Below, in pieces: positions 1 to 60,981 of a stretch of DNA of 64,000 bases. How positions within the stretch are numbered: position 1 is the stretch's first letter; each line of letters opens with the position of its first letter. A program made the translations under genes and the position numbers. The notes under the pieces were generated by a model. That model was not told the DNA's origin and ran no database searches. It saw nothing but the letters and a program-made list of their open reading frames with translations. Source of the stretch: Candidatus Frackibacter sp. WG13 (GTDB taxonomy: Bacteria > Bacillota > Halanaerobiia > Halobacteroidales > Acetohalobiaceae). The DNA lies in assembly GCF_900114655.1 (NCBI RefSeq), contig NZ_FOTT01000008.1:1-64000 (forward strand), in the 5' to 3' direction.

Positions 1-99
1 AAAAAATGGAAACTAATTTAAGCTAGAGATCCCCTAATGCATATGTATGAAATTTTTAAATAGTTAAAAGCAAGACCAGTAGTTACCAAGATGAACTTA

Positions 100-1338
100 T
101 TAACCTGCTTTATTTAAGACATCGTAGTCTGGAGTTTCAGGCAATTTATAAGCTGTTTTATCTCTCATCATAGCAAAAATAATATCAACTAAGCGACGTT
201 GTAAGCAGACTAAAGCAGATTTGCCAGATTTACCTTCGGCTAATTTTTTTTGGTAGTAGTTATAAGCAACTGGATTTTTGGGTTTACCATTTCTAGTAGT
301 ACTGATTTGTTGTAAGGCCAGCATATAAAAGGCATTGTTAAGATTACGACAACCATACTTTTTACGAGATGTGTGGCTTGATTTACCTGAACTGTGTTCA
401 GTCGGTGCTAAGCCTGAATATCTAGCTAACTGATTGGCTGAATTAAAGCGGCTAATATTACCGATTTCAGCAATGAATTGAGCCGCCAGGTTATAGCTAA
501 TGCCAGGCATGGTAGTAAGTTGATAAGGACTGTTATCAACCGCTTCTTGAAGCTCAGTCTTAATCTTTTCTAGTTGTTGGTTAATTAGCCGAAGTTGTTC
601 AATTAGCATAACAATAAGTTTATTTCTAGCTCTTACAGAAACATCTTGTTCTTGGTCTTTATCAACTAACGAAAGGATTTTACTAGCTTTATCATTGGAT
701 ATGTTTTTGGTCTGTTTTTTAAGGAATTTTTGTAATCTTTTTTCACCGTAATGCTTAAGTTTATTGGGATGAGGGAACTTTTTCCAAAAAGCTAAAGCAG
801 TCTTTACCTTAAAAGGGTTGCTAAAAAACTTCTCATAGTTAGGATATTGTTGATGAATTAAGTTATGTAATTGATTTTTAATCTGAGTTCGTTGCTTAAC
901 TAGCCCACGAAGATGATTATTTAATTGCTTAATAGCTTTATGATTACCGTCTTCATGAATGGTGGGTAACTTATCCCATTGAGCTAGTAATACGTTGGCG
1001 ATGGCTTCGCCATCAACTTGATCAGACTTATCAGGATTAGGACTATGTTGTCTTTCTCGTTTAGTTAAAGCAGGATTAACTTCTTTAACTTGATAATCCC
1101 TTTTAATTAACCATTGAGCTAAAGAGCGGCCTAATCCCTGGGTGTCTTCTAGACCAAAAACTAAAGTTTCCTGATTAGGAGTAAGAGTTTCAAGTTCTTT
1201 AATAAGTTCGTCAAAATTACTAGGGTTATTATGTGTTTCAACTACGCCAAGTTTTTGATGAAAGCAATTGATGACCACAGCAGTATGTTGATTCTTATGA
1301 GTGTCAACACCAACGAAGAGATAGTCTTGATAATTCAT
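100..1338 (-). CDS. IS110-family transposase (DEDD recombinase)
   Basis: A 412-residue transposase. The N-terminal DEDD-type RuvC-like domain starts with GVDTHKNQH and has a GLEDTQGLG segment near residue 65. The C-terminal Tnp_20 (IS116/IS110/IS902) domain contains PGISYNLAAQF and YSGLAPTEHSSGKS, which carries the conserved serine region. Family members excise and insert the element through a circular intermediate, using RuvC-like and serine catalytic residues. The length is normal and the frame is intact, so the protein may be active. The start was set at the ATG at 1338 because AAAGGAGTTG lies directly upstream; the TTG three codons earlier has no such site. The gene is read toward the left edge of the window. 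Confidence 0.93.
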   Translation of the reverse strand: MNYQDYLFVGVDTHKNQHTAVVINCFHQKLGVVETHNNPSNFDELIKELETLTPNQETLVFGLEDTQGLGRSLAQWLIKRDYQVKEVNPALTKRERQHSPNPDKSDQVDGEAIANVLLAQWDKLPTIHEDGNHKAIKQLNNHLRGLVKQRTQIKNQLHNLIHQQYPNYEKFFSNPFKVKTALAFWKKFPHPNKLKHYGEKRLQKFLKKQTKNISNDKASKILSLVDKDQEQDVSVRARNKLIVMLIEQLRLINQQLEKIKTELQEAVDNSPYQLTTMPGISYNLAAQFIAEIGNISRFNSANQLARYSGLAPTEHSSGKSSHTSRKKYGCRNLNNAFYMLALQQISTTRNGKPKNPVAYNYYQKKLAEGKSGKSALVCLQRRLVDIIFAMMRDKTAYKLPETPDYDVLNKAG

Positions 1339-1370: not shown

Positions 1371-1625
1371 TAATCATCAGGCGAGTCCTGTTGTAGAAGC
1401 GTTGGTTCGCAGCGTCCTATCTATCGTCTCTGATGATTAAAAGGAGTGGGAGCCAGTCTTAATAAAAGCGTTACTTCAAAATCAATTGAAGCCGCAAGGA
1501 GGGATAAAGACTAACCCACTCCCTATTGATTGACTTTTTCAAAAATTAAAAAGCGAGTTGGAGTCCTCAATGGTACGAGCGTTACTCCTTGAAAAAGGAG
1601 TCGCAGAGGTACTCCACCTCGCTTC
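1371..1625 (-). ncRNA. Candidate IS110 bridge RNA: three related hairpins
   Basis: Three hairpins lie in a row upstream of the transposase. Arms are 1551-1557 with 1618-1624; 1443-1450 with 1515-1522 (plus AGTCTT/AAGACT at 1455-1460/1507-1512); and the perfect ten-base arms 1371-1380/1430-1439. Each carries the same inner module: GCGTT (1579, 1468, 1399) and CGCA (1602, 1493, 1408) around a distal stem. Each has asymmetric internal loops between distal and proximal stems. IS110-group elements encode a bridge RNA in this position on the transposase strand, with internal loops that recognise target and donor DNA. Identity as a bridge RNA is inferred from position, promoter and architecture. Confidence 0.6.
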
Positions 1626-1631
1626 AGGGTA

Positions 1632-1660
1632 ATTATAACAAAATTTTAGACAAATGTTAA
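1632..1660 (-). promoter_or_regulatory. Sigma-A promoter for the IS110 leader RNA
   Basis: Read on the minus strand, TTAACA (1660-1655) and TATAAT (1637-1632) are separated by exactly 17 bases. The predicted start near 1625 falls at the base of the first hairpin, so transcription would begin with the structured RNA and continue toward the transposase gene. Confidence 0.7.
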
Positions 1661-1681
1661 GGTGGAGTACAATTATTTAAC

Positions 1682-1707
1682 TTATTAGTAAGATTTCTTA
1701 CTAATAA
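1682..1707. promoter_or_regulatory. Perfect inverted repeat ahead of the NhaC gene
   Basis: TTATTAGTAAG (1682-1692) and CTTACTAATAA (1697-1707) form an 11-base perfect inverted repeat with a 4-base gap. It ends about 13 bases before the AGGAGG site of the antiporter gene. It could be a repressor operator or a 5'-UTR hairpin. It lacks a T-run and so is not a typical terminator. Confidence 0.45.
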
Positions 1708-1731
1708 AATATCACAACAGGAGGGGTTAAT

Positions 1732-58872: not shown

Positions 58873-60981
58873 ATGATGAAGTTATTAATAATACCTATTT
58901 CTAAATTAGTAATTCTAGTTGGAGCAATATATTCATTGTTTCAAACTGATCAATACAAAAGAATAATTTTTAATAAAGATAATGCTAAGTTGTCAATTAA
59001 AGATAATTTATTATTAATTGCTCTATTTAGTTTAATCGGACTACTTGGTTTCTTAATTCAGCCACAGACTCGGAATTTATTTTTAGGTTTTGAAGATATG
59101 GGTTTTCTTTTAGCTGGGTTGCTAGGTGGTCCATTAATTGGGATATTTGTTGGGATAGTAGTTAGTCTTTATAAAATAACATTAATCAATCAAAATGCTA
59201 TTTTAGTCATAGTAGATGTTTTGGTATTAAGTGGTGTGGCAGGCTTTTTAAGAATTAATTTTGATTTTGAGGAAGAGTTTGACTATAAAGCAGTAATTAT
59301 TAAAAGTTTAGTTCCTGTAAGCCTTTTATATTTATTGTTAAATTTAAATGTTATTTATCGTTTTACCATTTCAACACCTAAAATTGCTACTTTTAAATTA
59401 TTTTTAAATTTAATAGGGGTCTACTTAACTATCTTTAGTATTAACAAATTGAAGCAATATGAACAAGAGAGAAAGTTAAAGGATAAAGCCATGGATAACT
59501 TAAATAAGTCTTTTAAAAAGTTAAATGGTCTTTATGAAATGGTAAATGAGGTTGATACTAGTGCTACTTTACATGCGACATTAAATTCAATAATTAATGT
59601 TACTTGTAAAGCGCTACAAGTAGATGCTGGAGGCATTATGTTACTAGATGATGATAAATCAATGCTTACTTGTGATGCTGTAAAGAATCTTAATAAAAAG
59701 CATATTCCAGGTAAGATAGAAGTTAAAGGGTTATGGGCCTCTATAATCGAAAATCAAAAAGTAATTATAAAAAATGATATTAGTTTTGATAAGGAATCTA
59801 ATTTTATTAATAATAATAATTATACAAATTTATTAGCTGCTCCTTTAGTAGAAGATGATAATATCTATGGCATCTTATTTGTGGCTGAAAACATTAAATT
59901 TAACAATGAAGATTTAAAAACTTTAAAAGCATTAGCTACTCAGGCTTCATTTGTAATTAAGCAAAATCAGTTATTTAATAAGATGCAACGTAATGTGGCA
60001 GAACTATCTACTCTACAAAGAGTTAGTAAGACTATTAATTCTACTTTGAATTTAGAACAAGTTTTAGACTTGACAAACGATGTAATTGTAGGAACCATGG
60101 GTGTCTCTTCTTGTGCTGTGCTTTTAATTGATGAAGAAAGCCAAGAATTAGATTTAGCGGCTAGCAGAGGTGTATTAGGTGAAAAATCTGAAATAAAAAA
60201 TGTAATAAATAATTCTGATTGTATATTAATTAATGAATTATTTGAGATGCAGAAGCCATTAGTTTATAATACGGTTCCAGAGGAAATAAAAGAAAATTTA
60301 GGAATGTCTCAACTTAAATCTGCTATTACCGTTCCTTTGAAGTCTCGGGGCAATATGATTGGAGCAATTATAGCAATCAATACATTAATGGCTCACAGTT
60401 TTAAAGAAGAAGACAAACGTTTTTTGACTACTTTAGCTAACCAAATATCTATTGCGATTGATAACGCAAGAATATATAATCGAATGGAAGAAATGGCTAG
60501 TAGAGATGGATTAACAAAGTTATATAATCATAGTTATTTCCAAGAAGCTTTAGCAGAAGAGATTAATAGAGCTGAGAGATATAATTTAGACCTCTCTTTA
60601 TTACTATTAGATATAGATAACTTTAAAAGCTTTAATGATACATATGGACATCCAGTAGGAGATAAGGTCTTAAAGAAGTTAGCTGAGACTTTACAAATAA
60701 CAACAAGAGATATAGATATTATAGCTAGGTATGGTGGAGAGGAATTTGCAATTATTCTCCCTGAGACGAAACCGGAAGGGGCTAAGAGAGTTGGTAAGAG
60801 AATTAACAAGGCTGTTCGAGAAATGATAATTAAAGAAGGGGATTTAGAGTTAAATGTAACGGTGAGTATTGGTGTAGCAACTTATAATAATGAGTTGTCT
60901 CAAAAAGAATTAATTAATAATGCTGACCAAGCTTTATATCAAGCTAAAGATGAAGGAAAAGATAGAACTTGTGTTGCTTAA
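58873..60981 (+). CDS. Membrane GAF-GGDEF diguanylate cyclase
   Basis: A 702-residue signalling protein. The N-terminal third is a LytS-type membrane sensor (5TM-5TMR-like: LLLIALFSLIGLLGFLIQ, LLAGLLGGPLIGIFVGIVVSLYKI). Two GAF domains follow (about residues 225-370 and 385-540). The C-terminal GGDEF domain has DGLTKLYNHSYFQEAL, and ARYGGEEFAIIL as active site. RDID, five residues before it, is an RxxD inhibitory site for product binding. It makes cyclic di-GMP. No EAL domain is fused. GAAGGGA precedes the ATG. It could set cyclic di-GMP levels for surface or motility control. Confidence 0.92.
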   Translation: MMKLLIIPISKLVILVGAIYSLFQTDQYKRIIFNKDNAKLSIKDNLLLIALFSLIGLLGFLIQPQTRNLFLGFEDMGFLLAGLLGGPLIGIFVGIVVSLYKITLINQNAILVIVDVLVLSGVAGFLRINFDFEEEFDYKAVIIKSLVPVSLLYLLLNLNVIYRFTISTPKIATFKLFLNLIGVYLTIFSINKLKQYEQERKLKDKAMDNLNKSFKKLNGLYEMVNEVDTSATLHATLNSIINVTCKALQVDAGGIMLLDDDKSMLTCDAVKNLNKKHIPGKIEVKGLWASIIENQKVIIKNDISFDKESNFINNNNYTNLLAAPLVEDDNIYGILFVAENIKFNNEDLKTLKALATQASFVIKQNQLFNKMQRNVAELSTLQRVSKTINSTLNLEQVLDLTNDVIVGTMGVSSCAVLLIDEESQELDLAASRGVLGEKSEIKNVINNSDCILINELFEMQKPLVYNTVPEEIKENLGMSQLKSAITVPLKSRGNMIGAIIAINTLMAHSFKEEDKRFLTTLANQISIAIDNARIYNRMEEMASRDGLTKLYNHSYFQEALAEEINRAERYNLDLSLLLLDIDNFKSFNDTYGHPVGDKVLKKLAETLQITTRDIDIIARYGGEEFAIILPETKPEGAKRVGKRINKAVREMIIKEGDLELNVTVSIGVATYNNELSQKELINNADQALYQAKDEGKDRTCVA

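What the first reader, a model, noticed from the sequence alone, without database searches (positions are those of the whole stretch)
1371..1670. Structured, promoter-driven RNA upstream of an IS110 transposase: a candidate bridge RNA
Seen: a minus-strand TTAACA-17-TATAAT promoter whose predicted start is at the base of three paralogous hairpins, each with GCGTT and CGCA around the distal stem and asymmetric internal loops. Known: IS110-group elements encode a bridge RNA upstream of the transposase whose loops pair with target and donor DNA. Inference: this is such an RNA, with three hairpin modules. The RNA segment at 1619-1609 equals DNA at 1660-1670 (AGGTGGAGTAC), a possible donor-end match.
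Basis: partly seen in the sequence, partly recalled or inferred. Interest (0 to 1): 0.7.

Follow-up and report, generated by a model that had tools for sequence, protein, structure and literature searches.

The report
IS110 bridge RNA targeting ribosome-binding sites
A mobile DNA element in a bacterium related to the salt-loving Halanaerobiales carries a guide ('bridge') RNA whose loops can be read base by base: one loop matches the element's own two ends, the other matches ribosome-binding sites in front of genes, where its copies sit; it is a well-supported new example of a known system with some unusual features.

Summary
Minus strand 1625-1372 encodes three paralogous hairpins behind a TTAACA-17-TATAAT promoter, upstream of an intact IS110 transposase. 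It is a bridge RNA. Hairpin B (1524-1442) is the target-binding loop and hairpin C (1438-1372) the donor-binding loop. Hairpin A (1625-1549) occupies the place of the 5' stem-loop.

All four guides, the CT core and the handshake bases could be assigned. They covary with target and donor DNA in relatives (LTG-LT and RTG-RT p<=1e-5, LDG p=4e-4, RDG p=8e-5; handshake 11 of 11, with two compensated changes). Empty sites in sister genomes fix a relative's ends: single CT, no duplication. The window's element ends at 1718 (core AG 1719-1720), not near 1670.

It is an inverted repeat between the promoter region and hairpin A, conserved and unexplained.

The target is the Shine-Dalgarno sequence. The left target guide contains CCUCCU, and all three full copies plus a solo end sit 13-16 bases before an ATG, leaving AGGAGG intact. 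IS900 is an older example of an IS110-family element at translation-initiation signals.

New member of a known kind.

The parts
1549..1625 (-). Hairpin A: 5' stem-loop position, third module, no guides found
   Evidence: covariation 13 of 21 pairs; 3' loop does not match own left end or target
1442..1524 (-). Hairpin B: target-binding loop
   Evidence: covariation; guide/target match
1497..1506 (-). Left target guide plus core, UAUCCCUC-CU
1456..1467 (-). Right target guide UUUUAUUA, core AG, handshake AC
1372..1438 (-). Hairpin C: donor-binding loop
   Evidence: covariation; donor match
1413..1420 (-). Left donor guide AUAGGACG
   Evidence: matches right end ATAGGACG in C42 and C10
1386..1394 (-). 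Right donor guide ACAAC, core AG, handshake GA
   Evidence: matches left end 1714-1720; GA complementary to target TC
1632..1660 (-). Internal promoter TTAACA-17-TATAAT
   Evidence: a -35 and -10 lie at this place in relatives
1660..1670 (.). Arm complementary to the 5' arm of hairpin A (1609-1619)
   Evidence: maintained in relatives, p=5e-5
1682..1707 (.). Palindromic hairpin between left end and promoter
   Evidence: fold; hairpin at this place in several relatives
1719..1720 (.). Core dinucleotide (AG on +, CT on -); left end of the element is 1718
   Evidence: C28/C29/C10 comparison; empty sites of a relative
1719..1726 (+). Target: Shine-Dalgarno AGGAGGGG of the antiporter-like gene that starts at 1732
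100..1338 (-). IS110-family recombinase (transposase), 412 aa
   Evidence: PF01548, PF02371, NF033542; alignment to IS621
1..99 (-). Right end, incomplete: the terminal 32 bases lie outside the window (C42:14213-14244)

Best explanation
The segment encodes the bridge RNA of an IS110-group insertion sequence. It would be transcribed from its own internal promoter (and, in the circular form, also from a promoter rebuilt across the junction, TTGACA in the right end and TATNNT in the left end), bound by the transposase, and used to hold two DNAs together. Hairpin B pairs with the chromosomal target: UAUCCCUC-CU with one strand and UUUUAUUA-AG with the other, i.e. TTTTATTA-AG-GAGGGATA, a Shine-Dalgarno sequence before a start codon. 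Hairpin C pairs with the joined ends of the excised circle: AUAGGACG with the right end, ACAAC-AG with the left end. The bases after each core complement (AC in B, GA in C) pair with the incoming DNA after strand exchange, the handshake of IS621. Recombination at CT inserts the element without target duplication. The left end ...CAAC with core AG is thereby placed in front of GAGG, so the downstream gene keeps an AGGAGG ribosome-binding site. Hairpin A is the 5' stem-loop, a degenerate third copy of the module without guides. Shown by sequence: structure, guides, core, ends, covariation, empty sites of a relative. Inferred: transcription, binding by the protein, catalysis, and preserved translation of the downstream gene.
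For: IS110 recombinase with aligned DEDD and serine residues. Structure covariation. Left target guide to left flank: own pairs match 5.2 of 7 bases, other pairs 3.2, 0 of 100000 permutations as good. Right target guide: 41 of 44 cells at the first 4 bases, p<=1e-5. Handshake bases complementary to the donor in 11 of 11, with two compensated variants. Donor guides p=4e-4 and 8e-5. An element with core TT instead of CT has all four guide positions changed to match (L015). Joined flanks of the H. saccharolyticum element equal empty sites in sister genomes with a single CT. Target at the Shine-Dalgarno sequence, ATG 13, 13, 16 and 13 bases downstream of the core in C28, C29, C10 and the solo end on C11.
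Against: No RNA or recombination data exist here. The left donor guide is one base short of the donor (GGACG-CU against GGACG-T-CT). Some old or damaged copies match poorly (L094, L096, L100; the right flank of the Halanaerobacter pseudogene copy). In two relatives (Tobar, G015) the two ends come from different contigs and were assumed to belong to one element. The right flank of the window's own copy is not assembled. No empty site is known for the window's own copies. Guide/flank strings were aligned by eye on the core before the permutation tests.
Confidence: 0.94

Rival explanations
1. The hairpins are an ordinary structured leader or antisense/attenuator RNA that tunes transposase expression, without guiding DNA recognition.
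For: The RNA lies directly upstream of the transposase gene and could be its leader. The Nature 2024 paper mentions small RNAs thought to modulate recombinase expression in ISPpu9 (PMC11208160).
Against: A leader gives no reason for loops that follow the flanking DNA and the element ends from copy to copy, including core and handshake changes.
Confidence: 0.03
2. Hairpin A is a third, active guide loop, for a regulatory DNA site or a second donor contact.
For: It shares the inner-stem motif with B and C, and its 3' side carries ...AG-GA like hairpin C. Its 5' arm is complementary to DNA beside its own promoter.
Against: Its two loop sides mostly pair with each other. Its 3' loop does not follow the left end or target of its own element. 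No copy of its would-be site exists in the genome apart from itself. Two relatives lack it.
Confidence: 0.08
3. Only a short processed part of the RNA is active in target choice, as in the seekRNA description of ISEc21, and donor recognition is by protein.
For: The seekRNA study found 70-100 nt RNAs for ISEc11 and ISEc21 (PMC11187229).
Against: Both sides of hairpin C follow the element's two ends across relatives, which needs an RNA role in donor recognition.
Confidence: 0.05

Closest known systems
IS621 bridge RNA and recombinase (PMC11208160, PMC11208158)
   Same: RNA encoded in the left end upstream of the recombinase; 5' stem-loop, target-binding loop, donor-binding loop in that order; left guides pair with the bottom strand and right guides with the top strand; CT core in the guides; handshake bases after the core; junction promoter in the circle; no target duplication.
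   Different: The recombinase is only distantly related (E 5.6e-12, best stretch the C-terminal half). The RNA has its own complete promoter inside the left end. Here the 5' stem-loop carries the same inner-stem motif as the two guide loops. The target is the Shine-Dalgarno sequence instead of REP elements. There is a conserved arm complementary to hairpin A.
IS900 of Mycobacterium avium subsp. paratuberculosis (Doran et al. [quoted passage not shown]
   Same: IS110-family element that inserts at translation-initiation signals.
   Different: IS900 was linked to expression of its own hed gene; no comparison of its RNA was made here. In the present elements the guide bases that match the Shine-Dalgarno sequence are identified.
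seekRNA of ISEc21 (IS110 family; PMC11187229)
   Same: Upstream non-coding RNA with two short regions complementary to the two target strands.
   Different: In that report the RNA is a short processed form; whether processing occurs here is unknown.

Membership tests
IS110-family bridge RNA system | DEDD RuvC-like plus C-terminal Tnp domain recombinase with a catalytic serine | tested here: met
   Pfam and NCBIfam hits; alignment to IS621 and ISCro4 around the DEDD residues and SSG
IS110-family bridge RNA system | Structured RNA in the left end upstream of the recombinase (IS110 group) | tested here: met
   Covariation on A2 and A3; found beside the transposase gene in relatives
IS110-family bridge RNA system | Loop whose two sides pair with opposite strands of the target | tested here: met
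   LTG-LT p<=1e-5; RTG-RT p<=1e-5
IS110-family bridge RNA system | Second loop whose two sides pair with the element's own joined ends | tested here: met
   LDG p=4e-4; RDG p=8e-5
IS110-family bridge RNA system | Core dinucleotide shared by donor, target and guides | tested here: met
   CT at the junctions of the window element and most relatives; TT in L015 is matched in all four guides. Caveat: the left donor guide is one base out of register with the core
IS110-family bridge RNA system | Handshake bases complementary to the incoming DNA | tested here: met
   TBL side 11 of 11 with GT/AC, GA/UC and AA/UU; DBL side GA/TC in the window element, not in every relative
IS110-family bridge RNA system | Insertion without target duplication at a defined empty site | tested here: met
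   Joined flanks of L037 align through the junction with sister genomes, single CT; not available for the window copy itself
IS110-family bridge RNA system | RNA expressed and bound by the recombinase; RNA-dependent recombination | not testable with these tools
   needs RNA sequencing and an in vitro or plasmid assay
IS1111 group | Non-coding RNA downstream of the transposase and 7-17 bp subterminal inverted repeats | tested here: not met
   RNA lies upstream; no such repeats seen by eye at the ends
Rfam families | Match to a described RNA family | tested here: not met
   No family at E<=10 over 1372-1625

The most novel reading that the evidence does not exclude
Bridge RNAs of this lineage arose from three copies of one module. 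The first (5' stem-loop) lost its guides and, with the conserved complementary arm by the promoter, became a switch: transcripts that start upstream, such as from the circle junction or from outside the element, first pair the arm with hairpin A, while transcripts from the internal promoter do not. At the same time the target guide copies the ribosome's anti-Shine-Dalgarno sequence, so the element can enter many genes' ribosome-binding sites and leave them working.
Probability: 0.25. Interest if true: 0.65.

Novelty: new member of a known kind. Interest (0 to 1): 0.5.

Why it matters
It gives a fully assigned bridge RNA (both loops, core, handshake, ends, and empty sites of a relative) for a branch of the IS110 family far from IS621 and ISCro4. 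It gives a guide-level reason why an IS110 element sits at ribosome-binding sites, as was reported for IS900. Natural variants with altered core, altered handshake bases and a missing 5' stem-loop allow rules so far derived from IS621 to be tested on independent elements.

Tried and rejected
Donor match of 1619-1609 to 1660-1670: rejected, since the left end is at 1718 and hairpin C matches the true ends. Hairpin A as a guide: no match of its 3' loop to its own left end or target, and no exact genomic target besides itself. IS1111-type assignment: the RNA is upstream. Rfam: no match. Relatives in viral contigs: none. Homologues of the antiporter gene for an empty site at the window copy: none in the family; the empty site was therefore shown for a relative instead. 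A first run of the guide test used a mistyped C10 flank; it was corrected.

Full report
WHAT IS THERE. The window is the start of contig C28 of a 2.77 Mb genome. Its relatives in the searches are Halanaerobiales. At 100-1338 on the minus strand lies an intact 412-aa IS110-family transposase. Upstream of it, minus strand 1660-1372 carries a TTAACA-17-TATAAT promoter followed by three hairpins. The fold is far better than shuffled sequence (z -4.8). The segment matches no Rfam family.

THE ELEMENT AND ITS ENDS. The genome holds a second copy (C29, same transposase, one base different in the first 1728), an 87% identical copy (C10), a contig end reading into the element from the other side (C42) and a solo left end on C11. 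C28 and C29 are the same up to ...ATCACAACAGGAGGG and then differ. C10 and C42 share TATTAAGACGTCCTATG at the other end. In transposase orientation the element is [left flank]-CT-GTTGTGAT...CATAGGACGT-CT-[right flank]. The left end is thus base 1718 and the core is 1719-1720 (AG on +). The window lacks the last 32 bases of the right end. The boundary rule was confirmed on the Halanaerobium saccharolyticum element: its two flanks joined over one CT align through the junction with the corresponding sites of sister Halanaerobium genomes, with no duplication.

CONSERVATION. Transposase relatives at 57-88% identity carry these hairpins in Halanaerobium, Halanaerobacter, Natroniella and uncultured Halanaerobiales; a more distant relative (G294) has all three as well. 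On 12 sequences, hairpins B and C have 14 of 37 pairs with double changes. On 10 sequences, hairpin A has 13 of 21. No shuffle of 500 reaches the covariation score, and slid structures collapse. A covariance model of hairpins B and C finds 18 copies in 13 of 59 genomes of the class. It also matches far relatives at about 40% protein identity (L040, L042).

GUIDES. In hairpin B the 5' loop UAUCCCUC-CU corresponds to the left flank plus core. Over 17 element/flank pairs, the seven bases next to the core agree in 5.2 positions on average with the own flank and in 3.2 with flanks of other elements. None of 100000 permutations reaches this, and positions -4 to -8 alone give the same result. The 3' loop UUUUAUUA-AG pairs with the right flank. 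Over 11 elements the first four bases match in 41 of 44 cells (p<=1e-5). In hairpin C, AUAGGACG matches the right end and changes with it in elements ending in ATAGGGAG, ATTGAACG, ACGGGATG, ATAGAACG and ATAGAATG (p=4e-4). ACAAC-AG matches the left end, with the variants ACAAU/ATTGT, ACGAU/ATCGT and ACGGU/ACCGT (p=8e-5). The bases after AG in hairpin B are complementary to the last two donor bases in all 11 elements, including GA/UC and AA/UU. This is the handshake pairing of IS621 (PMC11208158). One relative (L015) has core TT in place of CT and the matching bases in all four guides (sequences). Permutation tests treat related elements as independent, so the p-values are lower bounds on the true uncertainty; the compensated core and handshake changes do not depend on them.

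TARGET. The left target guide with the core reads CCUCCU, the anti-Shine-Dalgarno sequence. In this genome all three full copies and the solo end sit in AGGAGG with an ATG 13, 13, 16 and 13 bases downstream of the core. From their sequences, relatives in L037, L044, L100 and L098 also sit before a start codon; some others (G019, G044, Natroniella, G015) do not. Because the core is the first AG of AGGAGG and the left end stops at ...CAAC, insertion leaves AGGAGG in front of the gene. That translation is kept is an inference. An IS110-family precedent at translation-initiation signals is IS900 (Doran et al. 1997, known here by its title in the reference list of PMC8141618); the guide basis there was not examined here.

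HAIRPIN A. It stands where IS621 has its 5' stem-loop and shares the UGCG...AACGCU inner stem with B and C, so the three look like copies of one module. Its loop sides mostly pair with each other. Its 3' loop does not match the left-end side of its own element or the adjoining target. Relatives G019 and L045 lack it. It is therefore treated as structural.

The identity of 1619-1609 with 1660-1670 is an inverted repeat between the promoter region and the 5' arm of hairpin A. Over 11 elements the own-pair score exceeds all 20000 permutations (p=5e-5), with changed sequence and changed position; one element, G015, is not significant on its own. A nascent transcript from further upstream would pair these arms, although the complete RNA is predicted to return to hairpin A. 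The function is unknown.

PROMOTERS. In the circle, TTGACA of the right end and TATNNT of the left end would lie 17 bases apart, as in IS621. Unlike IS621, the RNA also has a complete promoter of its own inside the left end.

VERDICT. A real IS110-group bridge RNA with all guides assigned: a new member of a known kind, with a Shine-Dalgarno target, a three-module layout and a conserved but unexplained promoter-proximal inverted repeat.

Noticed in passing
window 1609-1619 and 1660-1670: Inverted repeat between the promoter region and the 5' arm of hairpin A, maintained over 11 elements despite sequence change (p=5e-5); it would form first in transcripts that start upstream of the internal promoter. 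Function unexplained.
   Followed up: partly
window 1682-1707: Perfect palindromic hairpin between the left end and the promoter; several relatives have a hairpin of quite different, often GC-rich, sequence at the same place, with no T-run after it.
   Followed up: no
L009 1514-1540 (contig C11, about 59006-59043): Solo left end AAAATATCACAACAG fused to GAGGTGTTTAGATG before a gene that looks like an FtsX-type ABC transporter: remnant of a past insertion at another ribosome-binding site.
   Followed up: partly
L017 (G019) and L045: Elements that lack hairpin A while keeping hairpins B and C; in L045 the deletion looks like recombination between the promoter-proximal arm and the 3' arm of hairpin A.
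   Followed up: partly
L101 (G046) and L098 (G003): Deletion derivatives in which hairpin A is fused into the remains of the target loop, leaving a donor loop but no left target guide.
   Followed up: no
L040, L041, L042: Relatives at about 40% protein identity in other phyla with the same RNA plan, a larger hairpin A and altered handshake bases (AA/UU in L040, GA/UC in L042).
   Followed up: partly
window 103-1338: The transposase has a sub-threshold match (34.8 bits, cut-off 100) to the TIGR-Tas RNA-guided endonuclease family, in line with the reported link between IS110 proteins and Tas.
   Followed up: no
window 1: C28 and C29 both start at the same base inside the element: an assembly break in a repeat, so the right flank of this copy is unknown.
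   Followed up: yes
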